Source of the DNA: Ascidia mentula
Taxonomy: Eukaryota; Chordata; Ascidiacea; Phlebobranchia; Ascidiidae
Assembly (NCBI GenBank): GCA_947561715.1
Contig: OX387198.1
Location: forward strand, 2,418,001 to 2,482,000
Direction of reading: 5' to 3'
DNA length: 64,000 nucleotides
The notes under the pieces were generated by a model. It was given only the letters and a program-made list of their open reading frames with translations, was not told where the DNA came from and did no database searches. The position numbers were made by a program, and so were the translations under genes. Below, piece by piece: positions 7,280-44,396 of the stretch. The stretch's first letter is position 1. Each line of letters opens with the position of its first letter.

Positions 7280-10200
7280 ATGGAGCTTGCTAAGGTATTG
7301 ATACCAATGGTTCGCCGTGAGCCATGCTTGTATGATTCTAAACACAAAGATTACAAAGATAAGGAATTCAAAGAAAATGTATGGCTAGGAATTAGTCAAA
7401 AAACGCATCAACCAGGTTAATTCTTTTGTTGCATTGGCTACTGCATTTGTGTTCCCAACAATTATGCAAGATGTTAATTTTTTTTAAAATATTCAGTGGA
7501 TGACTGCAAGGAAAGGTGGAAAAGTCTGCGTGATCGATTTTCAAAAGTAAAAAATGCTATGGATAGAAATAAAAAAAGTGCTAAAGGTAAAACAAGAGTT
7601 TGGAAGTACTACACAGATCTACAGTTCTTACAGGGTCATTTACGACTACCAATGTAAGCTATTTAAAATTCTATTATGTTTTGTGAGTGTATAAAATTAT
7701 GTCTGTTCACAGTATTGTTGATAACCCTGATTCAGACACAATTGAATTTCCTGAAAATGGTATGTTATATCATGTGTTCAGTGACCAGATTTCGATATTT
7801 TTGCTGTGCGACGCACACGATAATTTTTCTCTCCATGTTCAATCGCAATTACAAAGCAACACCCTGTGCACAATATTAAAGATAATTTAATTACTTTTGA
7901 AATGTTTTGTAGAATCTCATGGAAATGAAATGGAAGAGGCAGATATTTCGTGTACATCAACTACTACAAACTCCTCACCGCTTTGTAAGAAACGAAAACT
8001 GTCAACCTCAGAGTCGCAGGTAAAAAAAATTTGCTTTATTTCATGTATGTATGTTTTTATTAAACTATTTGCCCTTTTACTAGGAAAACTTTGATCACAA
8101 CAATACACATTCAAAGGAATCAAAAACTCAGTCACAATCTCATTATAACTTTTCAAACTTTGGCAATTTTGTGGCAGATACACTTCAATCTATGCCTCTT
8201 AATTCTGCCTATAAAGCAATGGCCACAATATTACAGTGTTTAGGTGCTCATTGTATGAATACTGATGAAGTTTCAGGTATGTAAGATTGTTTTTTTTTAA
8301 TATTGATAAAGAAGCACTTTGTATAAATTTCTCTGTATAAGAGTGTTTTGTAAATGTGTAACATAATACACTTTTTGGTACAATGTTATTAACAGCTTCA
8401 GTTAGTTTAGTGTTTCCCAACCGGTAGTACCACTAGTGATACGCAAAAGCATTCCAGGTCGTATGCGAGCGCCTTTCCGTAATTTGCAGATTTAGTTCCA
8501 ATTTAAAAAATCGCAAGTGATCTAAAAATGTTTGTTACTTCATCCCCTAGGTTATTTTGTAATTTTGACAAAGCCAAACTTAAACGTTCAAGAAAAACAT
8601 TAAAACATTAAACGTTTTTCTTGAGAGTTAAATTTGGCCCAAAAAAACGAACTTTATACGTTCATGAAAATGTTATGAGATACCAACAATAGCATGTGAC
8701 ATGTATTAATAATTTCCAATACTTTGAAAGATGATAATATTTTGGGCGCAAATCTTTTCTTTTCCGTGTAATTGTGTATCACACAAATTTACAGTCTTAG
8801 CATGTACGCTCTCTAACAACATAACCTTAAAGAAATGGAAGCGATGGTGTTCAATGAAGTATTATTGTATTACCCATGCCCGGTACAGGATCGTTAATAT
8901 AACTTAAAAACTACCACAAAAACTCCTGAATATTTGGTTTCGGCCAGAACCGAACTTAGGACGATTCTGTACATCACCAGTGTAGAATGTCAGATTAAGG
9001 GAATTTTTAATATTCTAATGCGTTTTTTTTGTTTAAGGAAACACAACATCCGCTGAGGTTAACACGGATGGTGCAAAAGAAGAACATGCAGCCACCAGAC
9101 TCAATCAGCAACATTATGAAGGTACAAACAACATAAACACATATTTTCGTGACTAGTGTATAAAGATACTGATATATAAAGTTACAAAAATACTGTGCAA
9201 CCCACAATAGCTTCAACATCCACCTAAGACAACACAGAAATCATGTATTTTCTTTTAAATGGTAAGGTAGGACTGCTTGCAGCAAAGTCTTAAGTTTGGC
9301 GATTTAAAAAAATAAGCATGTTTAGTATAAAATAAGCTCTTTCTTATTTTTGTAAGACTTACTCACAAAACTAAACAAGTGTTTTTGATGATGGTAAATA
9401 AATGTGGTCGTCTGGCAATTTGTTTATATTAATGTAACTTGCCTAGGATCTTAAGTTCACAGTTCACTGAGATCTAGATAATTGTCATTTCTTAATTAGA
9501 CTTTAAAGCTACTTTTGCAAAGCTTGGTTGTAACATAGATAACATTAATTTATAGGGCTCAGAAAATAATTTGCTTTGCCAAAAAAATTCGGATGCTGTA
9601 TATGTTTTTTCTTTATATTTTTTGATTTTGTAATGTTTAGATTATTTGAATAATGGTGAAAGCATTCAACGTCCTTGGAATGACCTAGAATAATAGTTAT
9701 GCAAGCGTTTCTTTTCTTATCATAATCAATATAATAATTGTTGTTTAGTGTTAGTTTGCCTCTAAATATTTGTTTGTTGTATACTTTTGCCTCTAAATAT
9801 TTGCTTCTCAAATGTAGACACTGCTTTGAACACTGGTAAACCTGAAAGTTACCATAATTTTGTCAGCAATGCTACAGAAAACTTCATGCCAGCAAATCAA
9901 TCTTCAGTTAATGCTAATGTTTTACCACCACAAACAGGTATTTCACATTGCTACAGTTCTGTATGTACAGAAAGGACATTTTGTATCATAAGCCAAATTG
10001 AACAACGTTAAACCTTACAGTTGGTTAACATTGAAAATCATGCCAGCATAAACAAGACATGCAAACCGGCTCATTTCGATCTGTGCTTGTTTTTTTTTGT
10101 TTTTGTGTTCACACACACAGATAATATTCCAAACAAGGAAATTAGCTTTTAGGTTTGTCTGCAAATACAGCTATGTAATTTTTCTAAAGTGTAAGATTCA

Positions 10201-13200
10201 TCTCGATGTTAAATTTGAGTTTTTTTTTTATGTTTAATGCAGGTTTTACTTCAGTGGGCGGAAATTTAAATCTCTTGACTGGAAACGATGCCTTTACTGC
10301 AAACAACTCAACACAGCAACCACAACTTATGCAATTTCTTCCATCAACAACAGGTATTTCAAAAAAATCTTGGAAATTTGGCTAGGTGGTAGAAGAAGAA
10401 ATGAACAATTAAGGCCCAATTTTTGCCTTTTTTGCCATTCTAAGTTTTCGATATGCGAAGCCACTGTCGACACGCGTGGCGTGAAACAATGTTGAGTTAC
10501 CGATATTCAGTAACATGAACAGACCAATGCCATTGTCTTTAAAGACCATAAATTGAATTACTTTAATAACTCAATTATCGGTCATGCCAATCTTGCAGCA
10601 TTCACATCGATCTTACTAGATTTGTTTTTTCAATGATTGGCATATAGATGCTGGTGGCAAAGTGGTTCAAAAAAATTGGTGCCAGTAGAAGTCATTTAAT
10701 TGCAAACTGCAAATGATTATTTCGGGAGAAATTTGTATTTTGAGTCACTATTAAACATCAGTATGTAACTGAATGGTTATATAGTGTTGAAAACTTAATG
10801 CGGTCATCGTTTGCTATGCTGGGATCCTCATCCAAATTAATTTTGTCTCTTTAGATGGCTAAGTAAGTGCAACCGCAAATAAATTTTTGAACAAAATCCA
10901 TGCAAACATCAGCCAACACTTGCTTTAACGTTCAGCGAATAAGCGCGTTATGTTTAAAACTAACCATTTACCAAACACGTGGCATGGTTGCCAAACATGT
11001 TGCTTTGTTTCGAAACAAAGACCGTTTTTTTGTTCAATTGGACCTATTTAAAGAGACATCTCAGCCTACAACATGCAGGTTATTCGTTTGTTTTGTCGCT
11101 ATTTCAATGTATTTTATGTATTTTTGTATTTTAAACTTATGTAAGTACAAGAATCCTATAATGGAAATAAGCCTGGTCGTTCTCATACGTTAGTTACCAG
11201 ACGACATTTTGCTATTCAACACGCACAACAATAAAGAAAATAATCTGCATTATTCAAAGCCTTAACTTTCAAGTTCCTTATCGCCAATTTAAACCACATG
11301 CTAGATATGTATATTTTTTGCGAGCCTCGTCAGAGCACTTAATCTACAAGTTAATTTTTTGGTAAAGCTTAAATTATGTCATTGTACACATATTGGAAGT
11401 GTTATAAATTTCTGTTTTGTGTAGATTCTACTTTCTGTAATGGTGGAAGTTCCTATAATACTGTCACCAGTGTCCCACCCAGAAATGGTTCTTTGATTAC
11501 CGCTAACCCAACACAACAACATCGGAATACGGTGCAAACTTTACAAACAGGTATTAACTTGAAATTAATAAGCTTTAAGCCAAAAGTCACACAGAAATGC
11601 AAGGAAGAAATTTTCTCCAAAATGGTAAAATATGCAGTGAATTCATTGCAACTTTGTGACATGAAAAAATCTTTATGTTAATTCATGTGTGCAACACCTT
11701 TTTCTCATGTCTTTTTTTCGTGTCATGCAATGAGGCCATCAGTCCATCCTAGCAAATTTGTTAATATCAAAAACTACGCGAAGAGTATTGACATAGAAAG
11801 ATGTTTTTAGTCCCTGTTCACCATCTTTTTTTATTTTGATATGATGTAACATTTATTATGTTTCCGAATACAGAATTCAGTGCAAACCATGTTGAAATTG
11901 CCAATAACCCAACAAGCTTTGGTGAATACAAAACAAGCGGTGATATTTCTACGAGGCAGTCAGATGCTGCAATAGTATTGATGCAACTTTCAGGTACGTT
12001 TTCTTGTAAATTAGTAAATGTGACAAAATTTAACGTTGTTTTTTTTTTTTTTGCACATGAATCTTTATGTGACCCTACCTAGGCCTAATTCTTTTCATTT
12101 TTTTTGAAAATCTGTAAAGTCTTGTACCGTATTTACTTGATTGTAAGCCACAGCTTGTAAAGTTTTTGAACCTACTGTTTCTGCGGTGTTCAATCGAGGG
12201 CAGCTTATATTCGTGGGTGGCTGTGGCTCTCAGTTTCAATGAAATTCATGTTTAACTTGCTCTGCCTTACCAGTACGTTTTATCAAACACAGTTATCAGC
12301 GTACCTGACAATTTCAATGGACAGATTTGTTGACAATTATTGTTATAGGGCACCTAAGGTTCCCTATGACATTTACATGTGGCTTAAATTCGAAGGCGGC
12401 TTATATTAACTTTTGAACACCGTCACAATTGAATAAATAAGGTTGTACATTCTCAAGTTTATTTGCACTATTTTTTTCACAAAATCACCAACTTGCTTAA
12501 CACTAACATGACAAAAGTATGAAAATATATTTTTGTAAAACCTATTCAAGGTATTGAAGAGCCTGCAACTACTCCTTATAGCCCAAGGTTCACTGAACTA
12601 TTAAATAGTCAACGAGTATATACTGGGAATATTATCCAGGGAGCAATACAACAAACAGGTAATTTCATTGTTTATTACAAGCCCATTGATTTACATAACA
12701 CATATGCAAAGTTATATTTTTTCAAATTACAAAACATCACCAAAGGTGTAGCTTAGATTTAGTTTTGTTTAATCACTTTCAAGGCACTGAACAGCATCCA
12801 ATCACCTCTTATGATGTAACCCATGATCCTTTTTCAAGTGATGAACAGATGAATGCAGGAAAACTTGTGCAGGAACAGCAGCAAACAGGTAATAAACACA
12901 ATTTGAAAAAAACTGTATCTGTTGTTGGTAACCCCTAGGAACAGACTGCTAGCACCCCCTTTTTGACAACTACTAGTATTGAAACATGAATAAACTTTTA
13001 TGTAAGAGGAATGTAGGAATACCATTTAACAGAAATGCAAGCAATGCGAATGCTTCAAAGAGAGCTGTTGATTATACAGTAAATACAACATTTCATAATT
13101 AAATACCACTGTATCGGGAAAGTTCGGGAAAAATGAACATTTTGTACTTTCAAATATCACATATATCGTGACAAAAACATACATGGTTTTACAGCACATT

Positions 13201-14231
13201 TGTTGTTTTATGACATCACAAATAACGGCATTGACGTGTATATTCTGTGATTTTTTACTAAACCTAATCAAAATTCCTTTTCTGATAAATTGTAAAACAT
13301 TAAAAGTACGAAATCTTGAATTTCTTTTTCCATTATGTCCCCTTTTTAAAAAAATACACGTTTACCACTCTTTAGCGCCACCAAAAAAAATTCCTCCGAA
13401 ACACTGACACTTTGAATAGACCGCCAGGGTATGTGATGGCGGGAGGTTGGATTTATTTATGTTTAAATTAAATAAATTGTTTTTATTTCAGATGGAAACA
13501 TCGATCCAACTTTTTTGATCCAAACTTACGTGAATTTGTTGGAAAAACATAAATATTCTGAAGCAAATGAAACAAGAAACCAACTTTCAAGGTCACTTGA
13601 AGGTCTTGGGGAAACTGCGGAAGATTTGGAAAAAACTGGAGGTAAAAAGAGAGAAGAGGGAAAATATTTGGAATCGATTTTATTTCGCGATGTTGCGTCT
13701 AAACTTTATGTCAAACGTGATGGAGATGAAGCGGTGGAAAGTGTGAAGGATTGTGTTGGGGGTTTGTATCTGACATGCGAAGATTTGATGAAAACATCGG
13801 ATTCGAATCAAGAACTTGAATACAAACGAATAATTCGAGATCATGTGATCCCACTCATGGAAACGATGAGACTCAAAATACAAAATATTGAAAACGTGGA
13901 AGAAGGTATTAAATGCGAGAATCAAGTGTGGTGTTTGCACTGGATTGGGTCGAGTCAACGTTTAATCGGAGAATATTTGTCGAGGGAATCAACAATTAAA
14001 CTTGGACTTGAAATGATGAGGAAACAGTTTGGTGAAAACTCAGCAAAGCATCGAGTTTTCGGACATTTGTTACACAACCTTGGTTTTGTTTGCGAGAAAA
14101 CAAATCGACTGAATGAAAGCGTGGATTTGTTCAAAAAAGCAATCCAAGCTTACAGAATGGCAACAGACATAACTGAAGAGAGAAGGGAGGAGTTCATTGA
14201 AAAAAGTAAAAACAATTTGAGTGAAATTTAA
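7280..14231 (+). CDS. MADF/BESS-like and TPR protein, tandem copy A (13 exons, 717 aa)
   Basis: Predicted nuclear, DNA-binding adaptor-type protein; its role is unknown. Coding exons: 7280-7415, 7497-7653, 7713-7759, 7913-8019, 8084-8276, 9038-9121, 9818-9937, 10243-10353, 11425-11550, 11874-11993, 12551-12658, 12784-12888 and 13492-14231. All have GT-AG borders and the frame stays open for 718 codons including the stop. Residues 1-98 form a MADF (Myb/SANT-like) domain, with REPCLYD, DDCKERWKSLRDRF and WKYYTDLQFL. KKRK at 139-142 is NLS-like. Residues 175-202 resemble a BESS helix. Residues 214-471 are a Ser/Thr/Gln/Asn-rich linker of small phase 1-1 exons. Residues 472-717 are helical with TPR-like repeats, for example HNLGFVCEK followed by AIQAYR. 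Compared with copies B and C it lacks linker exon 7 and ends eight residues early. MADF assignment is strong, TPR good, BESS tentative. A further 5' exon near 6.8 kb is possible. Confidence 0.85.
8409..8575. mobile_element. hAT-type MITE, 3'-truncated, intron 5 of copy A
   Basis: Starts AGTGTTTCCCAACC and is related to the 235-bp family in inverted orientation. The right end is deleted together with the left end of the following element. Confidence 0.7.
9641..9682 (+). pseudogene. Truncated linker exon 7 in copy A
   Basis: After a TTTAG acceptor the sequence matches the first part of exon 7 of B and C (coding LNNGES), then jumps directly to sequence that lies about 230 bp downstream of that exon in B. 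The deletion removed the exon's 3' half and its donor. Because the exon is symmetric (phase 1-1, 114 nt), skipping it keeps the frame. Confidence 0.75.
12125..12410. repeat. MITE-like repeat in the intron before exon 11 (GTATTGAAG exon), copy A
   Basis: Starts TACCGTATTTACTTGATTGTAAGCC and contains recurrent GGC(A/G)GCTTATATT motifs at both ends. Orthologous segments lie at about 29,153-29,436 and 42,261-42,546. The composition resembles common animal MITEs with GCTTATATTCGA motifs; no clear target duplication was found. Confidence 0.35.
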
Positions 14232-14403
14232 TCAAAACTTGCACAAAGAAAATAATTGTGACATCACAAACACAAAATGTGTTTTGTTAAATATGTTTGA
14301 ATTACATTGTTTAGGTAATTTGTATCAAAATGGAAGGTAGCTACCATGCACTTAATGAATTTTGTGATTATTATTTTCATGTCGTTAGTGATGTGTAGCT
14401 GAT

Positions 14404-14409
14404 AATAAA
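14404..14409 (+). terminator. Polyadenylation signal of copy A
   Basis: AATAAA lies about 175 nt after the stop codon, in a 3' flank conserved in all three units. The equivalent hexamer appears as AATCAA in B and AACAAA in C, so those copies may use another site. Confidence 0.45.
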
Positions 14410-18433: not shown

Positions 18434-18492
18434 GGTATCTTAAAAGTTGAAAATAGTATTGTGAAGTTGGGACACTGTTAAATCATGTAAGT

Positions 18493-23618: not shown

Positions 23619-23647
23619 ACCAAAGCTCGTGACTCGTGAGGTTTTAC

Positions 23648-23860: not shown

Positions 23861-26800
23861 ATGGAGCTTGCTAAGGTGTTGATACCAATGGTTCACCGTG
23901 AGCCATGTCTGTATGATTCTAAACACAAAGATTACAAAGATAAGGAATTCAAAGAAAATGTATGGCTACGAATTAGTCAAAAAACGCACCAATCAGGTTA
24001 ATTCTTTTGTTACATTGGCTACTGCTTTTGTGTTCCCAACAATTATGCAAGATGTTAATTTTTTAAAAAATATTCAGTGGATGACTGCAAGGAAAGGTGG
24101 AAAAGTCTGCGTGATCGATTTTCAAAAGTAAAAAAAACTATGGATAGAAATAAAAAAAGTGCTAAAGGTAAAACAAGAGTTTGGAAGTACTACAAGGATC
24201 TACAGTTCTTACAGGGTCATTTACGGCTACCGATGTAAGCTATTTATAAATTCTATTATGTTTTGTGAGTGTATAAAATTATGTCTGTTTACAGTATTGT
24301 TGACAACCTTGATTCAGACACAACTGAATTTCCTGAAAAAGGTATGTTATATTATGTTTTAGGTTTACAGGTTTTGCAGCCTATAGCTGTATCAGCCACT
24401 TTTTCCTGAAAACTCCGAGCGAGATTTAAAAAATCAGTCACCAGACTTCGATATTTTTGCTGTTCGACGCACACGATAATTTTTTTCCCCATGTTCAATC
24501 GCAATTACAAAGCAACACCCTGTGTATAATGTTGAAGATAATTTAATTACTTTTGAAATGTTTTGTAGAATCTCATGGAAATGAAATGGAAGAGGCAGAT
24601 ATTTCATGTACATCAACAACTACAAACTCCTCATCGCTTTGCAAGAAACGAAAACTGTCAACCTCAGAGTCGCAGGTAACAAAATTTTGCTTTATTTCAT
24701 GTATGTATATTATTATTCAACTATTTGCCCTTTTACCAGGAAAACTTTGATTACAACAATACACATTCAAAGGAATCAAAAACTTATAACTTTTCAAACT
24801 TTGGCAATTTTGTGGCAGATACACTTCAATCTATGCCCCTTAATTCTGCCTACAAAGCAATGGCCACAATATTACAGTGTTTAGGTGCTCATTGTATGAA
24901 TACTGAGGAAGTTTCAGGTATGTAAGATTGTTTTTTTTTAATATTGATAAAAAAGCACTTTGTATTAAATATCTCTGTATAAGAGTGTTTTGTAAGTGTG
25001 TAACATAATACACTTTTTGGTACAATGTTATTAACAGCTTCAGTTAGTTTAGTGTTTCCCAACCGGTAGTACCACTAGTGGTACGCAAAAGCATTCCAGG
25101 TCGTATGTGAGCGCCTTTCCGTAATTTGTGGATATAGTTCAAATTTAAAAAATCGCAAGTGATCTAAAAATGTTTGTTACTTCATCCCCTAGGTTACTTT
25201 GTAATTTTGTTTTACCTCCAAGTGGTACGCAACCACAAAAATGTTGGAAACCACTGGTTTATAGTGTAGAGTAGTGATGTAATGAAGCTTCGGTTTGCCA
25301 AATTTATTCGGCCGAATCTGCGATTTTGATGAAGATTCAGTTTTGGCTGAATAATTTGTTCTGATTCGGACAAAACCAAACTTATATGCTCATGAAAACG
25401 TTATGAGATACCAACAATAGCATGTGAACTGTATTAATAATTTCCAATACTTTGAAAGATGATAATATTTTGGGCGCAAATCTTATCTTTTCTGCGTAAT
25501 TGTGCATCACACAAATTTATGAACTGGTCGAAAACTAACGCAGAATCAACAACTCATTTGTATTGTTCAGTGACATGACAATAAAACTGTTACAGCGGCG
25601 GATTGCTATTGTGTTCTTAGCATGTACGCTCGCTAACAACATAACCTTTAAGAAATGGGAGTCTATAGTGTTCAATGAAGTATTATTGTATTACCCATGC
25701 CCGGTACAGGATCGTTAATACAACTTGAAAACTACAGCAAAAACTGAATATTTGGTTTCGACCAGAACCAAATTTGGACAATTCCATGCATCACTAGTGT
25801 AGAATGTCAGATTATGGAAATTTTTAAAATTGTGATGTGTTTATTTTATTTAAGGAAACACAACATCAGCTGAGGTTAACACGGATGGTGCAAAAGAAGA
25901 ACATGCAGCCACCAGACACAGTCAGCAACATTATGAAGGTACAAACAACATAAACACATATTTTCGTGACCAGTGTATGATCATACTGATATCAAGTTGC
26001 AAAAATGCTGTGCAACCCACAATAGCTTCAACATCCACCTAAGACAACACAGAAATCATGTATATATACTTTTATGTGGTAAGGTAGGATTGCTTGCGGC
26101 AAAGACTTCTGTTTGGGGATGTAAAAAATAAGCATGTTTAGTGTGAACTAAACAAGTGTTTTTGATGATGGCAAATAAATGTGGTCGCCTGGCAATTTGT
26201 TTGTATTAATGTAACTTGCCTAGGATCTTAAGTTCACACTTCACTGAGATCTAGAATTGTCATTTCTTATTTAGACTTTAAAGCTAATTTTACAAAGCTT
26301 AGTTTTAACATGTATATATGTAGATTATACATTGATTGATAGGGCCCAGAAAATAGTTTGCATTGCCCCAAAAAATGGACACTGTATAGGTTTTTCCCTT
26401 TATATTTTTTTGATCTTGTAATGTTTAGATTGCTTGAATAATGGCGAAAGCCTTCAACATCCTTTGAATGGGAATGATCATGTTTTGCATATCACTACAG
26501 CACAGCAACGTGCACAAACCATACCACAGAAGCAACAAACAGGTATTTTGAAAGCTGAAAATACTATTGTGAAGTTGGCACACTGTTAAATCGTGTAAGT
26601 CTGTCCATTTAGCTGGAAACTGTGGGTAGTAGTTCAGTGTGGATGGGGCCTGTCGATCAAAAAATGTTACTTTCTGCAACTCGATTATCATGGTTGCATT
26701 CTCTTTTTTTGCATTACAATACGAGTTTCATTAAAATAATAGTTATGCAAGTGTATTTCTTATCATAATCAATATAATAATTATTGTTTTGTGTTAGTTT

Positions 26801-29800
26801 GCCTCTAAATATTTGTTTGTTGTTTGTATACTTTTGCCTCTAATTATTTGCTTCTCAAATGTAGACACTGCTTTGAACACTGGTGAACCTGAAAGTTACC
26901 ACAATCCTGCAGAAAACCTTATGCCAGCAAATCAATCTTCAGTTAATGCTAATGTTTTACCACCACAAACAGGTATTTCACATTGCTGCATTTCCGTATG
27001 TACAGATTTCCGTATGTCATAAGTCAAATTGAACAACGTTGAACCTTTTGGTTAACATTGAAAATCATGCCAGCATAAACAAGACATGCAAACCAGCTCA
27101 TTTCGATCTGTGCTTGTTTTTTTTGTGTTCACACACACAGATAATATTCTGAAAAAGGAAATTAGCTTTTAGGTTTGTCTGCAAATACAGCTATGTAATT
27201 TTTAAGTAAGATCCATCTCGATTTTAAATTTGAGTTGTTTTTTATTGATGTTTTAATGCAGGTTTTACTTCAGTGGGCGGAAATTTAAATCTCTTGACTG
27301 GAAACGATGCCTTTACTGCAAACAACTTAACACAGCAACAACAACATATGCAATTTCTTCCATCAACAACAGGTATTTCAAAAAATCTTGGAAATTTGGC
27401 TAGGTGGAAGAAGAAGAAATGAACAATTAAGGCTCAATTTTTGCCTTTTTTGCCATTCTAAGTTTTCGACATGCAAAGCCACTGTTCGACATGGGCGGCG
27501 TGAAACAATGTTGTGTTACTGATATTCAGTGGCATGAACAGACCAACGCCATTGTCTTTAAAGACCATAAATTGAATTACTGGTCATGCCAATCTTGCAG
27601 CATTGACATCGATCTTACTAGTTTTCTTTTTTCAATGATTGGCATATAGATACTGGTGGCAAAGTGGTTCAAAAAATTGGTGCCAGTAGAAGTCATTTAA
27701 TTGCAAGTTGCAAATAATTATTTTGGGAGAAATTTGTATTTTGAGTCACTATTAAACAACAGCATTTACCTGAATAGTTACGTAGTGTTGAAAACTTAAT
27801 GGCATCATCGTTTGCTATGCTGGGATCCTCAGCCAAATTAATTTTGTCTCTTTAGATGGCTAAATAAATGCAACCGCATTAAATTTTGGACAAAATCCAT
27901 GCAAACACCAGTCAACACTGGCTTTGACGTTCAGCGAATAAGCGCGTTATGTTTAAAACTAACCATTTACCAAACACCTGGCATGGTTGCCAAACATGTT
28001 GCATTGTTACGAAACAAGTACCGTTTTTCGTTCAAATGGACCTATTTAAAGAGACATATCAGCCAACAACATACAAGTTTTTCTTTTGTTTTGTCACTAT
28101 TTCAACATGTATTCTAAACTTATTTAAGTACAAGACCCCTATGGTGGAAATAAGCCTGATAGTTCTCATACGTTAGTTACCAGATACGGCATTTTTACTA
28201 TTCCACATGCACAACAATTTTTTTCTCAAGAAAAAAATTTTCTTTTTTCTCATTATACAAAGCCTTAACTTTCAAGTTCCTTATCACCAATTTTTACCAC
28301 ATGCTAAATGTGTGTAATTTTTGCGAGCCTCATCAGAGCACTTAATCTACAAATTAATTTTTGGCATAAGCTTAAATTATAAAAACTACTTCTATCCGCA
28401 TGTCATTGTATAATATTTGAAGAGTTATAAATTTCTTTTTTGTGTAGATTCTACTTTCTGTAATGGTGGAAGTTCCTATGTTCCACCCGGAAATGGTTCT
28501 TTGATTACCGCTAACCCAACACAACAACATCGGAATACTGTGCAAACTTTACAAACAGGTATTAACTTGAAATTATTAAGCTTAAAGCCAAGAGTCACAC
28601 AGAAATGCAAGGAAGAAATTTTCTCCAAAATGGTATAAAAATATGCAGGGAATTCATTGCAACTTTGTGACACCAAAAAATCTTTATGTTAATTCATTTG
28701 TGCAACACCTTTTTCTCATGTCTTTTTTTTCATGTCATGCAATGAGGCCATCAGTGCATCCTAGCAAATTTGTTAATATCAAAAACTACGCGAAGAGTAT
28801 TGACATAGAAAGAAGTTTTTAGTCCCTGTTCACCATCTTTTTTTGTATTGATATGATGTAACATTTATTATGTTTCCAAATACAGAATTCAGTGCAAACC
28901 ATGTTGAAATTGCCAATATCCCAACAAGCTTTGGTGAATACAAAACAAGCAGTGATATTTCTACGAGGCAGTCGGATGCTGCAATAGTGTTGATGCAACT
29001 TTCTGGTAAGTTTTCTTGCAAAAAACACTGATTAGTAAATGTGACAAAATTTAACGTTCTTTTGTTTCTTTGTTTTTTTTGCACATGACTCTTTATGTGA
29101 CCCTACCTAGGCCTAAATCTTTCCATTTTTTTAAAAATCTGTAAAGTCTTGTACTGTATTTACTTAATTGTAAGCCACAGCTTGTAAAGTTTTTTAACCT
29201 ACTGTTTCTGCGGCGTTTAATCGAGGGCAGCTTATATTCGAGGGTGGCTGTGGCTCTGAGTTTCAAAAATATCAAGTTTAACTTGCTCTGCCTTACCAGC
29301 ACGTTTCATCAAACACAGTTATCAGCGTACCTGACAATTTCAATGGACAGATTTGTTGACAATTATTGTTATAGGGCACCTAAGGTTGCCGATGACATTT
29401 ACATGTGGCTTAAATTCGAAGGCGACTTATATTAACTTTTTAATACTGTCACAATTGAATAAATAAGGTTGTACATTCTCAAGTTCATTAGGACTATTTT
29501 TTTCAAAAAGTCACCAACTTGCTTAACACCAACATGACAAAAGTATGAAAATATATTTTTGTAAACCCTGTTCAAGGTATTGAAGAGCCTGCAACTACTC
29601 CCTATAGCCCAAGGTTCACTGAACTATTAAATAGTCAACAAGTATATACTGGGAATAATATCCAGGGAGCAATACAACAAACAGGTAATTTCATTGTTTA
29701 TTACAAGCCCATTGATATACATAACACAAATGCAAAGTTATATTTTTTAAAATTACAAAACGTCACCAAGGGTGTAGCTTAGATTTATTTTTGTGTAATC

Positions 29801-31326
29801 ACTTTCAAGGCACTGAACATCATCCAATCACCTCTTATGATGAAGCCCATGATCGTTTTTCAAGTGATGAACAGATAAATGCAGGAAAAGTTGTGCAGGG
29901 ACAGCAGCAAACAGGTAATAAAAACAATTTGAAAAAACTGTATCTGTTGTTGGTAATCCCTAGGAACAGACTGCTAGCACCCCCATTTTGAAAACTACTA
30001 GTATTGAAACATGAATAAGTTGTCATGTAAGAGAAATATAGGGATACCATTTAACAGAAATGCAAGCAATGTAAAATGCTTCGAAGAAAGCTGTTGATTA
30101 TACAGTGGATACAACATTTTATAAACAAATACCACTATATTTAAATATATCTGTGTAAACCAATGAGCAAGTACCAAAATCTTTCCAAAAACTTTTGGGA
30201 AAAATGAACATTTAGGACTTTCAAATATCACATATATCGTAACAAAAACATACATGGTTTTACAGCACATTTGTTGTTTTATGACATCACAAATAACGGC
30301 ATTGACGTGTATATTCTGTGATTTTTTACTAAACCAAATCAAAATCCCTTTCCGATAAATTGTAAAACATTAAAAGTACAAAATCTTAAATTTCTTTTTC
30401 CAATATGTTCCCCTTTTTAAAATAAATACACGTTTACCACTCTTTAGCGCCACTAAAAAAATTCCCCCGAAACACTGACACTTTGAATAGACCGCCAGGG
30501 TATGTGATGGCGGGAGGTTGGGTTTATTTATGTTTAAATTAAATAAATTGTTTTTATTTCAGATGGAAACATCGATCCAACTTATTTGATCCAAACTTAC
30601 GTGAATTTGTTGGAAAAACATAAATATTTTGAAGCAAATGAAACAAGAAACCAACTTTCAAGGTTGCTTGAAGGTCGTGGGAAAACTGCGGAAGATTTGA
30701 AAACAACTGGACATGAAAAGAGATTAGAGGGAAAATATTTGGAATCGATTTTATTTTTCGATGTTGCGTCTGAACTTTATGTCAAATGTGATGGAGATGA
30801 AGCGGTGGAAGGTGTGGAGGATTGTGTTTGGAGTTTGAGTCTGACATGCGAAGGTTTGATGGAAACATCGGATTCGAATCAAAAACTTGAAAACAAACGA
30901 ATAATTCGTGATCATGTGATCCCACTGATGGAATCGATGAGACCCAAAATACAAAATATTGAAAACGTGGAAGAAGATATTAAATGCGAGAATCAAATGT
31001 GGTGTTTGCACTGGATTGGGTTGAGTCAAGGTTTAATCAGAGATTATTCGTCGAGGGAATCAACAATTAAACTTGGACTTGAAATGATGAGGAAACAGTT
31101 TGGTGAAAACTCAGCAAAGTATGGAGTGTTCGGAGTTTTGTTAAGTGACCTTGGTGTTGTTTACAAGGAAACAAATCAACTGAATGAAAGCGTGGATTTT
31201 TATGAAGAAGCAATCCAAGCTTACAGAATGGCAACAGACATAAGTGAAGATATAAGGGAGGAATGGATTGAAGAAAGTCAAAACGATTTAAGTGTTGTTG
31301 AATCAAAACTTGCACAAAGGAAATAA
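23861..31326 (+). CDS. MADF/BESS-like and TPR protein, tandem copy B (14 exons, 749 aa)
   Basis: This is the second tandem paralogue, with the same domain order as copy A. Coding exons: 23861-23996, 24078-24234, 24295-24341, 24569-24675, 24740-24917, 25855-25938, 26429-26542, 26865-26972, 27262-27372, 28448-28558, 28886-29005, 29577-29684, 29810-29914 and 30563-31326. They sum to 2,250 nt, exactly 750 codons with the stop. It keeps linker exon 7 (26429-26542, starting DCLNNGESLQHP). Exon 5 is 15 nt shorter than in A, exon 8 is 12 nt shorter and exon 10 is 15 nt shorter; all are multiples of three. The C-terminus reads ESKLAQRK. In the MADF domain, R12 of A is H (MVHREPCLYD). Intron 5 carries two hAT-type MITEs. 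The intact frame across 14 exons argues for an expressed gene. Confidence 0.87.
24357..24445. repeat. SINE-body fragment in intron 3 of copy B
   Basis: It matches 48,797-48,888, adjacent to the tRNA-like head, and is absent from intron 3 of copy A. The same insertion is present in copy C at about 37,123-37,201. Confidence 0.5.
25050..25256. mobile_element. hAT-type MITE, intron 5 of copy B
   Basis: Runs from TAGTGTTTCCCAACC to TTGGAAACCACTG. It is orthologous to the copy C element, whose flanks are clearer. Confidence 0.75.
25272..25797. mobile_element. hAT-type element, 526 bp, intron 5 of copy B
   Basis: Ends TAGTGATGTA and TGCATCACTA; flanks GTGTAGAG / GTGTAGAA form an 8-bp duplication with one mismatch. 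Non-coding. Confidence 0.65.
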
Positions 31327-34758: not shown

Positions 34759-34993
34759 CAGTGATTCCCAACCTTTTTGTGGTTGCGTGCCACATGGAGG
34801 TAAACAACTTCGACGACGCGTATCACCTAATTGAGAAAGTAACCTAGGGGATGACGTAACAAACATTAAGTGATCCCTTACGGTTTTTTTAAATTCAAAC
34901 TATATCCGCTAAATACGGAAAGGTTGTCGCGTACCACCTGGAATGCCGTCGCATACCACTAGTAGTGCGCGTACCACCGGTTGGGAAACACTG
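34759..34993. mobile_element. hAT-type MITE, 235 bp (unit 3)
   Basis: Orthologous to 5394-5628 and 21796-22030, with the same flanking CCGTAAAT and CCATAAAT. Confidence 0.8.
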
Positions 34994-36061: not shown

Positions 36062-36396
36062 CACGTGTAAAATAGTTTCCCAGGAAAGGCCCTGCGACGT
36101 CATTCCCGTTGGTTGGTTTGTGTGGCGTCAGAAGTCAAACTTGTGAAGAAGAAAACATGGCGCCAGACGTTCGATTGCGAAATAAGGCAACAAATAAGGT
36201 ACAACAATAAAACACTGGAAGGTTACAACAACAAAAAATGGCGAAAATATTCCGGACTTTTCCATAATATACATTTAACTGTTCTCAATTAATATGTGAC
36301 AAATATCTAATGGTGATCATGCCAACCAAGCAAAGACTTCCTCTTTTTCGTGACATTCTTGTGTTTACCGTTTAGCTGTTTTATTGTCTGACGTCA
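36062..36396 (+). promoter_or_regulatory. Candidate promoter of copy C
   Basis: CACGTG is at 36062-36067, GACGTCAT at 36096-36103 and TGACGTCA at 36389-36396. All three sites are retained although the interval around them has small deletions relative to A and B. Confidence 0.4.
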
Positions 36397-36606
36397 ACCA
36401 AAGCTCGTGAGGTTTTACGATGGAAAGTTTCAGTTCCTCTGTGCGATGAAACATGTAAAGTGTGTTCAATCTGCATAAATATCATTGAGGATTGATACAA
36501 TTGCTAGCAGCGTGAATTTGTGGTTTGAGTGGATTGCTTAATTTATAGTTTACAGTATTTCAAATAACAAAATTTTTGTTTAGATTAGACCCCAAAGTTG
36601 TTTATA

Positions 36607-39600
36607 ATGGAGCTTGCTAAGGTGTTGATACCAATGGTTCGCCGCGAGCCATGCTTGTATGATTCTAAACACAAAGATTACAAAGACAAGGAATTCAAAG
36701 AAAATGTGTGGCTAGAAATTAGTCAAAAAACGCATCAATCAGGTTAATTCTTTTGTTGCATTGGCTACTGCATTTGTATTTCGTTTTAATTTGTTGTTTA
36801 CAAAACATTACGCAATACGTTAATTTTATAAAAAAATATTCAGTGGATGACTGCAAGGAAAGGTGGAAAAGTCTGCGTGATCGATTTTCAAAAGTAAAAA
36901 AAACTATGGACATAAATAAAAAAAGTGGTAAATGTAAAACAAGAGTTTGGAAGTACTACACAGATCTACAGTTCTTACAGGGTCATTTAAGACTGCCGAT
37001 GTAAGCTATGTAAATATTCTATTGTGTTTTGTAAATGTATAAAATTATGTCTGTTTACAGTTATGTTGACAACCTTGATTCGGACAAAACTGGATTTCCT
37101 GAAAAAGGTATGTTATATTATGTGTTAGGTTTACAGGTTTTATAGCCTAGCTGGATCAGCCTATTTTTTTCTGAAAAGTCAGAGCAAGATTTAAAAAATC
37201 AGTCCTCCCATCTTCGATATTTTTGCTGTGCGACGTACACGATAATGTTTTTCTCCATGTTCAATGGCAATTACAAAGCAACACCCTCTGCATAATATCA
37301 AGGATAATTTAATTACTTTTGAAATGTTTTGTAGAATCTCATGGAAATGAAATGGAAGAGGCAGATATTTCGTGTACATCAACTACTACAAACTCCTCAT
37401 CGCTTTGCAAGAAACGAAAACTGTCACCCTCAGAGTCGCAGGTAGCAAAATTTTGCTTTATTTAATGTATGTATGTTATTATTCAACTATTTGCCCTTTT
37501 ACTAGGAAAACTTTGATCACAACAATACACATTCGAAGGAATCAAAAACTTATAAATTTTCAAACTTTGGCAATTTTGTGGCAGATACACTTCAATCTAT
37601 GCCCCTTAATTCTGCCTATAAAGCAATGGCCACAATATTACAGTGTTTAGGTGCTCATTGTATGAATACTGAGGAAGTTTCAGGTATGTAAGATTGTTTT
37701 TTTTAATATTGATAAAGAAGCACTTTGTTTCAATTATCTCTTTATAAGAGTGTTTTGTAAGTGTGTAACATAAACACTTTTTGCTACAATGTTATTAACA
37801 GCTTCAGTTGGTTTGTAGTAGTGTTTCCCAACCGGTAGTACCACTAGTGGTTTGCAAAAGCATTCCAGGTCGTATGCGAGCGTCTTTCCGTAATTTGTGG
37901 ATAAATTTCCAATTTAAAAAATCGCAAGTGATCTAAAAATGTTTGTTGCTTCATCCCCTAGGTTACTTTGTAACTTTGTTTTACCTCCCAAGTGGTACAC
38001 AACCACAAAAAGGTTGGAAATCACTGGTTTATAGTGTATAGTAGTGATGTACTGAAACTTTGGTTTGCCAAATTTATTCTTCAGCCGAATCTGTGATTTT
38101 AATGAAGATTCAGTTTTGGCCGACTTAGACGCTCAAGAAAAACGTTATGAGATAAACAAAAATAGCATGTAAACTGTATTAATAATTTCCAATACTTTAA
38201 AAGATGATAATATTTTGGGCGCAAATCTTATCTTTTCCGTGTAATTGTGTATCACACAAATTTACAGTCTTAGCATGTACGCTCGCTAACAACCACTGGC
38301 GTAGGTGCAGGGGTGCCGTGCGCCCCCGACCTTTTCTAAATTTACAACGTAATTGCATCGTGTCCTTTCGGTTCTCGCCGGTTTAAACCGCAGCAAAAAT
38401 AAAGGCGCATTTCCTTCTGATAGCACTCAAAGTGCTTAACACGCTGTTTTGTTTGTCTCGTATTCGCGAACAACAATTACGCAACAAGCGAAATTACGTT
38501 GGTGATGAACGTGCTTACATGGACGACGCTTTAACTTGTATATTATGGCGTGCAAACGACCTTCTGACGTTAGTATTTTTTATTCGCCGCACCCCCGTTG
38601 ATGAGCAAAACTCTACGCCTATGCTAACAACATTCCCTTTAAAAAATGGAAGCGATGGTGTTCAATGAAGTATTATTGTATTACCCATGTCCGGTACAGA
38701 ATCGTTAATACAACTTGAAAACTACCGCAAAAACTGAAAATTTCGTTTCAAACCAGAACCGAATTTGGACAATTCCATGCATCACTAGTGTAGAATGTCA
38801 GATTATGGAAATTTTTAAAATTGTCATGTGTTTATTTTATTTAAGGAAACACAACATCAGCTGAGGTTAACACGGATGGTGCAAAAGAAGAACATGCAGC
38901 CACCAGACACAATCAGCAACATTATGAAGGTACAAACAACATAAACACATATTTTCGTGACCAGTGTATAAAGATACTGATATCAGGTTGCAAAAATACT
39001 GTGCAACCCACAATAGCTTCAACATCCACCTAAGACAACACAGAAATCATGTATATATGATTTTATATGGGTAGGTAGGATTGCTTGCGGCAAAGACTTC
39101 TGTTTGGCGATGTAAAAAATAAACATGTTTAGTGTGTACTAAACAAGTGTTTTTGATGATGGTAAATAAATGTGGTCGTCTGGCAATTTGTTTGTATTAA
39201 TGTAACTTGCCTTGGATCTTCAGTTCACACTTCACTGAGATCTATAAATATATTTCTTATTTAGACTTTTACAAGGCTTAGTTTTAACATTTATATACAA
39301 TGTACATATGTATATTATACATTGATGATAGGGCCCAGAAAATAATTTGCTTTGCCAAAAAAATTCGGACACTATATGCTTTTCACATTATATTTTTTTG
39401 ATATTGTATTGTTTAGATTGCTTGGATAATGGTGAAAGCCTTCAACATCCTTTGAATGGGAATGGTCATGTTTTGCATTTCACTACAGCACAGCAACGTC
39501 CTCAAACCATACCACAGAAGCAACAAACAGGTATTTCAAAAGGTGAAAATAGTATTGTGAAGTTGGCACACTGTTAAATCGTGTAAGTCTGTCCATTTAG

Positions 39601-42600
39601 CTGGAAACTGTGGGTAGTAGTTCAGTGTGGATGAGGCCTGTAGATCAAAAAAATGTCACTTCCTGCAACTCAATTATCATAAGTGGTTGTATTACTTTTT
39701 TGCATTACAATACGAGTTTCATTAAAATAATAGTTATGCAAGTGTATTTCTTATCATAATCAAAATAATAATTATTGTGTAGTGTTAGTTTGTCTCTAAA
39801 TATTTTCCTTTCAAATGTAGACACTGCTTTGAACACTGGTGAACCTGAAAGTTACCACAATCCTGTCAGCAATGCTACAGAAAACTTCATTCCAGCAAAT
39901 CAATCTTCAGTTAATGGTAATGTTTTACCACCACAAACAGGTATTTCACATTGCTGCATTTCCATATGTACAGAAAGGACATTTTGTATCATAAGCCAAA
40001 TTGAACAATGTTAAACCTTACAGTTGGTTAACATTAAAATTCATGCCGGCATAAACAAGACATGCAAACCAGCTCATTTCGACCTGTGCTTGTTTGTTTT
40101 TTTATTTTTGTGTTCACAGACACAGATAATATTCCAAAAAAGGAAATTAGCTCATAAGTTTGTCTGCAAATACAGCTATGTAATTTTTCTGAAGTGTAAG
40201 ATCCATCTTGATTTTAAATTTGAGTTGTTTTTTATTGATGTTTAATGCAGGTTTTACTTTAGTGGGCAGAAATTTAAATCTCTTGACTGGAAATGATGCC
40301 TTTACTGCAAACAACTTAACACAGCAACCACAACTTATGCAATTTCTTCCATCAACAACAGGTATTTCAAAAAATCTTGGAAATTTGGCTAGGTGGTAGA
40401 AGAAGAAATGAACAATTAAGGCTTAATTTTTGCCTTTTTTGCCATTCTAAGTTTTCGACATGCAAAGCCACTGTTCGACACGGGCTACATGAAACAATGT
40501 TGAGTTACCGATATTCAGTAACATGAACAGACCAACGCCATTGTCTTTAAAGACCATAAATTGAATTACTTTAATAACTTAATTATCGGTCATGCCAATC
40601 TTGCAGCATTCACTCATCAATCTTACTAGTTTTCTTTTTTCAATGATTGGCATATAGATGCTGGTGGCAAAGTGGTTCAAAAAAATTGGTGCCAGTAGAA
40701 GTCATTTAATTGCAAACTGCAAATAACTATTTGGGGAGAAGTTTGTATTTTGAGTCACTATTAAACAACAGCATTTACCTGAATAGTTATGTAGTGTTGA
40801 AAATTTAATGCAATCATCGTTTGCTATGCCGGGATCCTCATCCAAATTGATTTTGTCTCTTTAGATGGCTAAATAAATGCAACCGCAATAAATTTTAGAC
40901 AAAATCCATGTAAACACCAGCCAACACTTGCTTTAACGTTCTGTTATGTTGAAAACTAACCATTTACCAAACACGTGCCATGGTTGCAGAACATGTTGCT
41001 TTGTTACGAAACAAAGACCGTTTTTTGTTCAATTGGACCTATTTAATGAGACCTATCAGCCTACAACATGCAGGTTATTCTTTTGTTTTGTTGCTATTTC
41101 AACATGTATTCTAAACTTATTTAAGTACAAGAATCCTATAATGGAAATAAGCCTGGTCGTTCTCATACGTTAGTTACCACATACGGCATTTTTACTATTC
41201 AACACGCACGACAATTTTTCTCAAGATGTTTGACACGCAATAAAAATCCGATGCCCTGAACAATAAAGAAAATAATCTTCATTATTAAAAGCCTTAACTT
41301 TCAAGTTCCTTATCGCCAATTTAATCCACATGCTAGATATGTATAATTTTTTGTGAGCCTCATCAGAGCACTTAATCTACAAGTTAATTTTTGGTAAAAG
41401 CTTAAATTATAGAAACTACTTCCATCCACATGTCATTGTGTACATATTTGAAGAGTTATAAATTTCTTTTTTGTGTAGATTCTACTTTCTGTAATGGTGG
41501 AAGTTCCTATAATACTGTCACCAGTGTCCCACCTGAAAATGGTTCTTTGATTACCGCTAACCCAACACAACAACATCGGAATACTGTGCAAACTTTACAA
41601 ACAGGTATTAACTTAAAATTATTAAGCTTAAAACATCAGAATACTGTGCAACATCGGAATACTGTGCAAACTTTACAAACAGGTATTAACTTGAAATTAT
41701 TAAGCTTAAAGCCAAAAGTCACACAGAAATGCAAGGAAGAAATTTTCTCCAAAATGATATAAAAATATGCAGTGAATTCATTGCAACTTTGTGACACGAA
41801 AAAAATGTTAATTCATTTGTGCAACACCTTTTTCTCATGTCTCTTTTTTCGTGTCATGCAGTCCATCCTAGCAAATTTGTTAATATCAAAAACTACGCGA
41901 AGAGTATTGACATAGAAAGAAGTTTTTAGTCCCTGTTCACCATCTTTTTTTGTATTGATATGATGTAACATTTATTATGTTTCCAAAAACAGAATTCAGT
42001 GCAAACCATGTTGAAATTGCCAATATCCCAACAAGCTTTGGTGAATACAAAACAAGCAGTGATATTTCTACGAGGCAGTCGGATGCTGCAATGGTGTTGA
42101 TGCAACTTTCCGGTAAGTTTTCTTGCAAACAAACACTGATTAGTAAATGTGACCAAATTTAACGTTCTTTTGTTTCTTTGTTTTTTTTGCACATGAATCT
42201 TTATGTGACCCTACCTAGGCCTAAATCTTTCCATTTTTTTTGAAAATCTGTAAAGTCTCGTACCGTATTTACTTGATTGTAAGCCACTGCTTGTAAAGTT
42301 TTTTAACCTACTGTTTCTGCGGCGTTCAATCGAGGGCAGCTTATATTCGAGGGTGGAGGTGGCTCTGAGTTTCAATAAAATTCATGTTTAACTTGCTCTG
42401 CCTTACCAGTACTTTTTATCAAACACAGTTATCAGCGTACCCGACAATTTCAATGGACAGATTTGTTGACAATTATTGTTATAGGGCACCTAAGGTTGCC
42501 TATGACATTTACATGTGGCTTAAATTCGAAGGCGGCTTATATTAACTTTTGAACACCGTCACAATTGAATAAATAAGGTTGTGCATTATCAAGTTCATTT

Positions 42601-44396
42601 GGACTAGTTTTTTCAAAAATCACCAACTTGCTTAACACTAACATGACAAAAGTATGAAAATATATTTTTGTAAAACCTATTCAAGGTATTGAAGAGCCTG
42701 CAACTACTCCCTATAGCCCAAGGTTCACTGAACTATTAAATAGTCAACAAGTATATACTGGGAATATTATCCAGAGAGCAATACAACAAACAGGTAATTT
42801 CATTGTTTATTAGCCCATTGATTTTACATTATACAAATGCAAAGTTATGTTTTTTCAAAAACAAAACATCACCAAGGGTGTAGCTTAGATTTATTTTTGT
42901 GTAATCACTTTCAAGGCACTGAACATCATCCAATCGCCTCTTATGATGAAACCCATTATCGTTTTTCAAGTGATGAACAGATAAATGCAGGAAAAGTTAT
43001 GCAGGGACGACAACAGCAAACAGGTAATAAAAACAATTTGAAAAAACTATCTGTTGTTGGTAATCCCTAGGAACAGACTGCTAGCACCCCTTTTTTGAAA
43101 ACTACTAGTATTGAAGCATGAATAAGTTGTTATGTAAGAGGAATGTAGGAATACCATTTAACAGAAATGCAACAATGTAAAATGCTTCAAAGGGAGCTGT
43201 TGATTATACAGTAGATACAACATTTTATAATTAAATACGACTATATTTAAATATATCTGTGTAAACCAATGAGCAAGTACCAAAAACTTTCGGGAAAAAT
43301 GAACATTTAGGACTTTCAAATATCACATATATCGTAGCAAAAACATACATGGTTTTACAGTACATTTGTTGTTTTATGACATCACAAATAACGGCATTGA
43401 CGTGTATATTCTGTGATTTTTTTACTAAACATCATCAAAATCCCTTTTCTGATAAATTGTTAAACATTAAAAGTACGAAATCTTAAATTTATTTTTCCAA
43501 TATGTCCCTCTTTCAAAAAAATACACGTTTACCACTCTTTAGCGCCACCAAACAAATTCCCCCGAAACAGTATGTAATGACGGGAGGTTGGGTTTATTTA
43601 TGTTTAAATTAAATAAATTGTTTTTATTTCAGATGGAAACATCGATCCAACTTATTTGATCCAAACTTACGTGAATTTGTTGAAGAAACATAAATATTCT
43701 GAAGCAAATGAAACAAGAAACCAACTTTCAAGGTTGCTTGAAGGTCGTGGGGAAACTGCGGAAGTTTTGAAAACAACTGGATGGGAAAAGAGAAGAGAGG
43801 GAAAATATTTGGAATCGATTTTATTTTACGATGTTGCGTCTGAACTTTATGCCAAACGTGATGGAGATGAAGCGGTGAAAGGTGTGGGGAGTTGTGTTTG
43901 GGGTTTGAGTTGGACATGCGATGAATTGATGAAAACATCGGATTCGAATCAAGAACTTGAAAACAAACGAATAATTCGTGATCATGTGATCCCACTCATG
44001 GAAACGATGAGACTCAAAATACAAAATATTAAAAACGTGGAAGAAGATATTAAATGTGAGAAGCAAATGTGGTGTTTGCACTGGATTGAACGGAGTCAAG
44101 ATTTAATCGGAGATTATTTGTCGAGGGAATCAACAATTAAACGTGGACTTAAAATGATGAGGAAACAGTTTGGTGAAAACTCAGCAAAGCATGAAGTGTT
44201 CGGACATTTGTTAAACAACCTTGGTGCTGTTTGCGAGGAAACAAATCGACTGAATGAAAGCGTGGATTTTTATCAAAAAGCAATTCAAGCTTTCAGAATG
44301 GCAACAGACATGAGTGAAGATATAAGGGAGGTGTGGATTGAAACACGTGAAAACAAATTAAGTGAAGTTGAATCAAAACTTGCACAAAGGAAATAA
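36607..44396 (+). CDS. MADF/BESS-like and TPR protein, tandem copy C (14 exons, 759 aa)
   Basis: This is the third tandem paralogue. Coding exons: 36607-36742, 36844-37000, 37061-37107, 37335-37441, 37506-37683, 38846-38929, 39417-39530, 39821-39940, 40251-40361, 41479-41604, 41993-42112, 42686-42793, 42916-43023 and 43633-44396. They total 2,280 nt, 760 codons with the stop. Exon 10 is followed by a local duplication that creates a second, in-frame donor at 41,682 (+78 nt), so a 785-aa isoform is possible. Exon 13 is one codon longer than in A and B. Intron 5 contains nested hAT-type insertions. Domain assignment is as for copy A: MADF at the N-terminus, NLS-like KKRK, BESS-like helix, modular linker and TPR-like C-terminal exon. 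Confidence 0.87.
37123..37201. repeat. SINE-body fragment in intron 3 of copy C
   Basis: Same insertion as in copy B, at the equivalent position downstream of exon 3. Sharing by B and C but not A suggests either a B-C common ancestor or loss in A. Confidence 0.5.
37819..38026. mobile_element. hAT-type MITE, intron 5 of copy C
   Basis: Runs from TAGTGTTTCCCAACC to TTGGAAATCACTG, flanked by GTTTGTAG / GTTTATAG (8-bp duplication, one mismatch). Confidence 0.75.
38042..38787. mobile_element. hAT-type element interrupted by a second insertion, intron 5 of copy C
   Basis: Orthologue of 25272-25797, beginning TAGTGATGTA after GTGTATAG and ending GCATCACTA. It is split by the 330-bp insertion at 38,294-38,623. 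Confidence 0.65.
38294..38623. mobile_element. Nested hAT-type insertion specific to copy C
   Basis: Perfect 8-bp target duplication CTAACAAC at 38286-38293 and 38624-38631. Ends CACTGGCGTAG and CTACGCCTATG are imperfect inverted repeats. Absent at the same site in A and B, where the empty site reads CTAACAACAT. Non-autonomous. Confidence 0.85.
41605..41682 (+). repeat. 78-bp exon-donor duplication in copy C
   Basis: The end of exon 10 and the start of its intron are repeated, giving two CTTTACAAACAG donors at 41,604 and 41,682. The intervening 78 nt are open (26 codons) in the reading frame. A and B have a single donor. Confidence 0.85.

What the first reader, a model, noticed from the sequence alone, without database searches (positions are those of the whole stretch)
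7280..44396. Tandem family of MADF plus TPR-like fusion proteins
Three complete paralogues join a MADF DNA-binding domain, an NLS-like patch and a BESS-like helix to a C-terminal TPR-like module through a long modular linker. MADF-BESS proteins are usually short transcription factors; coupling to a TPR-type ligand platform in one polypeptide, in a recently expanded cluster, is unusual and could be a lineage-specific sensor or regulator system.
Basis: partly seen in the sequence, partly recalled or inferred. Interest (0 to 1): 0.75.

Follow-up and report, generated by a model that had tools for sequence, protein, structure and literature searches.

The report
Diversified MADF/kinase–TPR receptor gene family
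A sea squirt carries a large tandem family of genes whose shared C-terminal TPR domain varies most at predicted ligand-binding positions and is attached to either a DNA-binding or a kinase front end, as expected of a fast-evolving recognition receptor that has not yet been tested.

Summary
Three units join MADF exons, an NLS-like exon, a BESS-like helix, 7-8 linker exons and one TPR exon; 8 of 9 units examined splice to one open frame of 684-759 codons with GT-AG sites and compatible phases. The window is chromosome 2 of the sea squirt Ascidia mentula. The TPR exon belongs to a family of at least 147 hits. In the 23 array copies read, dN exceeds dS in 98% of 253 pairs; all 14 sites over 2 bits lie on TPR A helices (p = 4.6e-6), and 7 of the 8 whose register was set sit at known ligand-contact positions. 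The same linker and TPR also follow a RIPK-like kinase (7 of 23 units; 16 are MADF/BESS); the window holds a kinase-type 5' end at 50.6-53.7 kb. Best reading: a lineage-specific family of modular intracellular recognition receptors, NLR-like in logic but without a NOD. Single-gene structure and groove diversification are well supported; an immune role is inferred. Pfam does not confirm BESS. No transcripts were available; public RNA-seq (ERR10378036) would settle the gene model.

The parts
7280..7415 (+). Copy 1 exon 1: start codon and first half of MADF
   Evidence: Pfam PF10545 1-37
7497..7653 (+). Copy 1 exon 2: second half of MADF
   Evidence: Pfam PF10545 40-84
7713..8276 (+). Copy 1 exons 3 (7713-7759), 4 NLS-like (7913-8019), 5 BESS-like helix (8084-8276)
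   Evidence: GT-AG; exons enter/leave in phases 2/1, 1/0, 0/1
9038..12888 (+). Copy 1 linker exons lk1, lk3, lk4, lk5, lkX, lk6, lk7, phase 1 at both ends; lk2 is a remnant without a donor (9641-9684)
13492..14231 (+). Copy 1 TPR exon, stop 8 codons early
23861..24234 (+). Copy 2 MADF exons 1 (23861-23996) and 2 (24078-24234)
24295..24917 (+). Copy 2 exons 3 (24295-24341), 4 NLS-like (24569-24675), 5 BESS-like (24740-24917)
25855..29914 (+). Copy 2 eight linker exons, each a multiple of 3
30563..31326 (+). Copy 2 TPR exon with stop codon
36607..37000 (+). Copy 3 MADF exons 1 (36607-36742) and 2 (36844-37000)
   Evidence: spliced Pfam E 2.2e-22
37061..37683 (+). Copy 3 exons 3 (37061-37107), 4 NLS-like (37335-37441), 5 BESS-like (37506-37683)
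38846..43023 (+). Copy 3 eight linker exons, each a multiple of 3, phase 1 at both ends
43633..44396 (+). Copy 3 TPR exon with stop codon; hypervariable A-helix positions
50599..50757 (+). Kinase-type unit: exon with glycine loop and VAVK lysine
50818..51726 (+). Kinase-type unit: RIPK-like kinase frame (HGD, DFG, APE present); the proposed donor (CCAAG|GT, phase 1) lies shortly before 51726
   Evidence: Pfam PF00069 5.5e-36; the L029 kinase, 82% identical, best matches RIPK1
53571..53681 (+). Kinase-type unit: NLS-like exon, phase 1 at both ends; no TPR hit follows in the window

Best explanation
Each unit is one gene encoding an intracellular protein in which a C-terminal TPR domain reads a ligand in its concave groove and a swappable N-terminal module delivers the output: DNA binding and perhaps self-association by MADF plus a BESS-like helix, or phosphorylation by a RIPK-like kinase. 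Shown by sequence: the continuous spliced frame, the shared linker and TPR behind two kinds of N-terminus, linker junctions in phase 1, purifying selection on MADF, and diversifying selection on the TPR exon concentrated at predicted groove positions. Inferred: that the groove binds a protein or peptide ligand that differs from copy to copy, that the ligand is non-self (pathogen, symbiont or allogeneic), and that ligand binding switches the N-terminal module. The system would work like NLR receptors (variable repeat sensor, interchangeable effector) but without a nucleotide-binding switch.
For: Open spliced frame in 8 of 9 units, exon indels in frame. TPR exon in nine MADF units dN .099, dS .065, dN>dS in 35 of 36 pairs, against MADF dN .018, dS .115. 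Over 23 units dN>dS in 98% of 253 pairs. Sites on A helices: 14 of 14 over 2 bits, 15 of 16 over 1.8, 26 of 37 over 1.2. Of the 14, eight lie in the three repeats whose register was set and 7 of these 8 are at TPR positions 2, 6, 9, 12 or 13, ligand contacts in PMC1261162 (passages). Synonymous change is not raised next to these codons, so selection rather than local hypermutation. A diverged cluster on another chromosome shows overlapping variable positions (p = 1.2e-7). Two N-terminal kinds: 16 MADF/BESS, 7 kinase of 23; kinase and NLS exons also end in phase 1. Kinase closest to RIPK1 in the PDB (E 9.5e-26). TPR near-twins with unlike N-termini: L013/L023, 90% TPR identity, their MADF first halves 98% and 61% identical to copy 3.
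Against: No transcript, protein or ligand data. No NOD domain. BESS not recognised by Pfam. No AATAAA/ATTAAA within 500 bp of the TPR stop in copies 2 and 3 (copy 1 has one at 172). In the C69 cluster dN is not above dS (.071 against .075; 15 of 36 pairs). Five other clusters were sampled for an N-terminus at one locus each: two show a kinase, three no recognised N-terminus. Seven of 37 variable sites over 1.2 bits are on B helices and four in loops. One of the eight registered top sites is at position -2, and the register of two repeats was set by eye. dN/dS was by NG86 counting, not a likelihood site model; gene conversion was not modelled.
Confidence: 0.62

Rival explanations
1. Two neighbouring genes, a MADF-BESS transcription factor and a separate TPR gene, duplicated together as a block.
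For: Tandem duplication alone would keep them paired at 4-15 kb. Three sampled loci of other clusters have TPR exons without a recognised upstream partner. No transcripts were available.
Against: MADF exon 5 ends in a consensus donor in phase 1, and the linker exons and the TPR exon are phase 1; the copy 3 TPR frame has no in-frame ATG before residue 99 of 253; the frame is open end to end in 8 of 9 units; the same linker follows a kinase in other units.
Confidence: 0.1
2. The family serves self/non-self or gamete recognition (self-incompatibility, allorecognition) or a selfish conflict rather than defence against microbes.
For: Tandem, fast-evolving groove as in other recognition systems; ascidians have self-sterility and allorecognition (general knowledge).
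Against: At least 147 exons over several chromosomes is many for a single mating locus; a kinase closest to RIPK1 points to stress or immune signalling.
Confidence: 0.2
3. A genome-defence system: MADF brings the protein to DNA and the TPR groove binds proteins of particular transposons or viruses.
For: DNA-binding domain conserved (dN/dS about 0.15) while the TPR groove varies; NLS-like exons in both types.
Against: Kinase units carry TPR exons intermixed with those of MADF units in the tree, which does not fit a purely DNA-targeted role.
Confidence: 0.07
4. Decaying or transposon-derived repeat array without function.
For: Some copies are broken: L021 has a 1-base deletion in exon 5, L026 lost two linker exons, partial TPR hits exist. 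MADF-like hits are scattered elsewhere in the genome.
Against: Purifying selection on MADF and in-frame indels; variation concentrated on one helix face is not expected from decay.
Confidence: 0.01

Closest known systems
Fungal NLRs with NB-ARC/NACHT and TPR repeats (Podospora and others; PMC4986451, passages read)
   Same: C-terminal TPR under positive selection at sites on the concave side, large families, varied N-terminal effectors; the TPR model there used kinesin light chain 2, and kinesin light chains are among the best fold matches here
   Different: No NOD domain in the spliced copy 3; five unlike repeats in one exon rather than highly alike repeats of varying number; N-terminus is MADF/BESS or a RIPK-like kinase; an animal
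Brown algal NB-ARC-TPR and LRR-ROCO candidate immune receptors (PMC11378527, passages read)
   Same: Exon shuffling of repeats; positive selection on the concave face (shown there for LRR-ROCO)
   Different: Here the whole TPR domain is one exon and the swapped part is the N-terminus; no NB-ARC or ROC-COR in copy 3
MADF-BESS transcription factors (insect Adf-1, Stwl; recalled)
   Same: MADF domain plus NLS-like patch plus a helix of BESS-like kind
   Different: Fused to a long linker and a hypervariable TPR domain; BESS not confirmed
RIP kinases (RIPK1 is the best PDB match)
   Same: Kinase domain with VAVK lysine, HGD, DFG
   Different: C-terminus is linker plus TPR; RIPK C-terminal domains were not searched for in the spliced kinase type

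Membership tests
MADF-BESS proteins | MADF domain over Pfam cut-off | tested here: met
   79.6 bits against cut-off 22 in the spliced copy 3
MADF-BESS proteins | BESS motif | tested here: inconclusive
   No Pfam match for exon 5 at E up to 10; conserved and BESS-like by eye only
TPR domain proteins | Over Pfam gathering score | tested here: not met
   Window copies below cut-off: TPR_12 28.3 against 30.1 (copy 3), TPR_10 26.3 against 27.5 (copy 2); a diverged copy, in L037, reaches 35.4 against 30.1
TPR domain proteins | Helix-pair solenoid of TPR type | tested here: met
   pLDDT 94.2, 11 helices; Foldseek KLC1 TMq 0.53, Pins (LGN) 0.61
NLR receptors | NOD module (NACHT or NB-ARC) | tested here: not met
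   No such match in the spliced copy 3; so it is not filed as an NLR
NLR receptors | Repeat sensor diversifying on its concave face | tested here: met
   the face is inferred from A-helix location and TPR register, not from coordinates
RIP kinases | RIPK-like kinase domain | tested here: met
   RIPK1 best of PDB hits for the L029 kinase; the window kinase is 82% identical to it
RIP kinases | Death domain, CARD, ankyrin or RHIM C-terminus | not tested
   The spliced kinase type was not scanned as a whole; its linker and TPR are homologous to the MADF type

The most novel reading that the evidence does not exclude
A chordate has evolved a NOD-free, germline-diversified receptor system in which one hypervariable TPR groove is wired by phase-1 exon swapping either to a RIPK-like kinase or straight to a DNA-binding MADF module, so that a single protein can be both the non-self receptor and the transcription factor.
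Probability: 0.45. Interest if true: 0.9.

Novelty: new variant of a known kind. Interest (0 to 1): 0.8.

Why it matters
Tunicates are the sister group of vertebrates. A large, rapidly diversifying receptor family there that uses TPR grooves instead of LRRs or immunoglobulin domains, and that may act directly on DNA, would add a new design to the short list of diversified animal recognition systems, parallel to the TPR-bearing NLRs of fungi and brown algae. It gives an immediate set of testable positions (the 14 most variable residues) for a ligand search.

Tried and rejected
Local hypermutation as the source of TPR diversity: synonymous change within two codons of hypervariable ones equals that further off (.033 and .030, p = .50). 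TRADD-like N-terminus in L037: E = .085, below cut-off; the genome search with that family found one match, elsewhere on chromosome 2, and the only PDB hit up to E = 1 was a designed protein at .056; dropped. Screening frames by third-position bias alone was too noisy. Polyadenylation signals were not informative. Paper searches (listings only) showed nothing on this family, on Ascidia mentula with immune and gene family, returned no paper. Other ascidian genomes are not held, so how widely the family occurs is untested.
Full report
What the window is. The genome search places the window at G000:C2:2,418,001-2,482,000 of a 195.8 Mb genome in 79 contigs. The mitochondrial contig is 19,461 bases and contig C1 is 27,920,005; COX1 there reads well under the ascidian code, with AGA/AGG at glycine positions, and two matches to GH6 (E 9.2e-6 and 1.1e-4), which among animals I recall only from tunicates, lie in the genome. 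The Ascidia mentula genome note (PMC11109543, first of three parts read) gives a longest scaffold of 27,920,005 bp, a 19.46 kb mitochondrion and a 19.88 Mb chromosome 2. The species is therefore Ascidia mentula; the summed length printed there differs slightly (196.98 Mb in 95 scaffolds).

The observation. The window has three tandem units about 13-17 kb apart. Each has MADF split over two exons, an exon with KKRK, an exon with a BESS-like helix, linker exons and a TPR exon. Comparing nine MADF units (three of the window, L013, L015, L021, L024, L026, L027) fixed the splice sites: five N-terminal exons ending in phases 1, 2, 1, 0, 1; eight linker exons in copy 3, each a multiple of three and phase 1 at both ends; and the TPR exon entered in phase 1. 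Leaving out exons that lack a splice site, 8 of 9 units are open from MADF to the TPR end (684-759 codons); L021 is broken by a 1-base deletion in exon 5, and copy 1 of the window stops 8 codons early. Exon indels are rarer (4.4 against 28.7 per kb) and in frame in 8 of 10 cases against 32 of 158 in introns. MADF scores E 2.2e-22 on the spliced copy 3; the BESS helix is not recognised by Pfam.

A larger family. The TPR exon finds 147 places in the genome, a lower bound because only 147 of 292 candidates were scored: 27 on the plus strand at 2.26-3.06 Mb of chromosome 2, others in further clusters on chromosome 2 and on other contigs. Of 23 MADF first-half hits on chromosome 2, 19 are followed on their strand by a TPR exon within 20 kb, 18 of them in this array and one, with a diverged TPR, on the minus strand. 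Of 28 first-half hits on other contigs none lies within 20 kb of a listed TPR hit, by my inspection of the coordinates.

Two N-termini, one C-terminus. Of the 27 array hits three are in the window; of the other 24 I read 20 in 10 kb pieces, leaving out four partial TPR hits. With the window's three, 16 of 23 carry MADF/BESS modules (L020 and L022 by the BESS exon only, their MADF hits lying further upstream) and 7 of 23 kinase-type modules (L017 by its NLS exon only, L031 by the end of the kinase frame and the NLS exon). The kinase of L029 is closest to RIPK1 among solved structures; in the window's kinase the lysine, HGD, DFG and APE are present. The kinase exon and its NLS-like exon end in phase 1, so either head fits the same linker. 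Homology between the types begins 85 bases past the BESS exon in five of the seven kinase units (L017, L018, L029, L031, L032), and only in later linker sequence in L016 and L025. The window itself contains the 5' part of a kinase-type unit at 50,599-53,681, with no TPR hit behind it; the next TPR unit has a kinase end of its own. Kinase-linker-TPR also occurs at 1.30 Mb (L035) and on C69 (L038), which suggests that the kinase form is older; that is an inference from two loci.

Selection. Over the nine MADF units mean dN/dS is .018/.115 for MADF.031/.046 for exons 3-5.039/.050 for linkers and .099/.065 for TPR. Over all 23 units TPR dN is .111 and dS .067, dN exceeding dS in 98% of 253 pairs; the 37 codons with entropy over 1.2 bits have dN .545 and dS .171, the other 225 columns .055 and .054. 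AlphaFold2 on the three window copies gives five helix pairs and a cap at pLDDT 94.2, pTM .88; Foldseek matches KLC1, LGN/Pins and NASP TPR domains at modest E (about 4-6e-4), and also 14-3-3 proteins. All 14 sites over 2 bits lie in A helices (109 of 253 residues; p = 4.6e-6); over 1.2 bits it is 26 of 37 (p = 3e-4). Entropy is one-sided in helices 3, 5, 7 and 9 (p .011, under .0002.005.0006), borderline in 11 (.050) and not in helix 1 or the B helices (lowest .09, helix 4). In the last repeat the variable positions are 2, 5, 9, 12 and 33 of the TPR motif, with 25 and -2 besides; in the second 5, 9, 10, 13 and 24; in the fourth 5, 6, 9, 12 with -1 and 20 (the second and fourth registers were set by eye, the third repeat and the cap were not registered). 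Of the 14 top sites eight fall in these repeats, seven at 2, 6, 9, 12 or 13 and one at -2. PMC1261162 (passages read) lists 2, 5, 9, 12, 13, 33, 34 as the most variable TPR positions and 2, 5, 6, 9, 12, 13 as ligand contacts. Raised synonymous change near these codons, which local hypermutation would leave, is not seen. Coordinates of the model were not at hand, so the groove is inferred from helix and register.

Replication. Nine TPR exons of the C69 cluster (14 listed there; eight fetched plus one in L038), about 40% identical to copy 3, show sites over 1.5 bits on the A helices (10 of 12, p = .006), and the array's 14 top sites are more variable there too (p = 1.2e-7), but dN (.071) is not above dS (.075) overall, 15 of 36 pairs.

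Shuffling. The TPR tree of the 23 is nearly a star (2 of 22 inner branches well supported) with kinase and MADF units intermixed, 3 label changes against 6.2 in shuffles, 1 of 500 shuffles as low: heads are partly clustered but not one clade each. L013 and L023 have the most similar TPR exons (90%) but dissimilar MADF first halves (98% and 61% to copy 3). Exchange between heads and TPR exons is the simplest reading; gene conversion is an alternative.

Mechanism and comparison. The anatomy is that of a sensor with exchangeable output. Fungal NLRs show TPR domains selected on the concave side (PMC4986451, passages) and brown algae have NB-ARC-TPR candidates (PMC11378527, passages). This family's spliced copy 3 lacks a NOD and so is not an NLR; it would work like one. 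That the ligand is non-self, and that MADF drives a transcriptional response on ligand binding, are inferences without direct test. Paper searches listed nothing describing this family; only open-licence papers are held and only listings were seen.

Noticed in passing
window 55159-58543: 205-base tandem repeats (90-97% alike) facing an inverted copy (arms 903 bases, 99% complementary), just behind the kinase unit that lacks a TPR exon; possibly the cause of its truncation.
   Followed up: no
L037 gene strand 2068-2562 (C2 2.64 Mb): A 165-codon frame ahead of three TPR exons in a row; no recognised domain, perhaps a third kind of N-terminus.
   Followed up: partly
L014 1299-2282: A 328-codon frame that by eye looks like a multi-pass membrane protein, similar in L019 and L023; no Pfam match.
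   Followed up: partly
G000:C2:2565012 and 2573840 (minus strand): A diverged MADF hit 8.8 kb upstream of a TPR exon 47% identical to copy 3: perhaps an older MADF-TPR gene.
   Followed up: no
L036 4513-5483: Retroelement-like frames (by eye) between two TPR exons.
   Followed up: no
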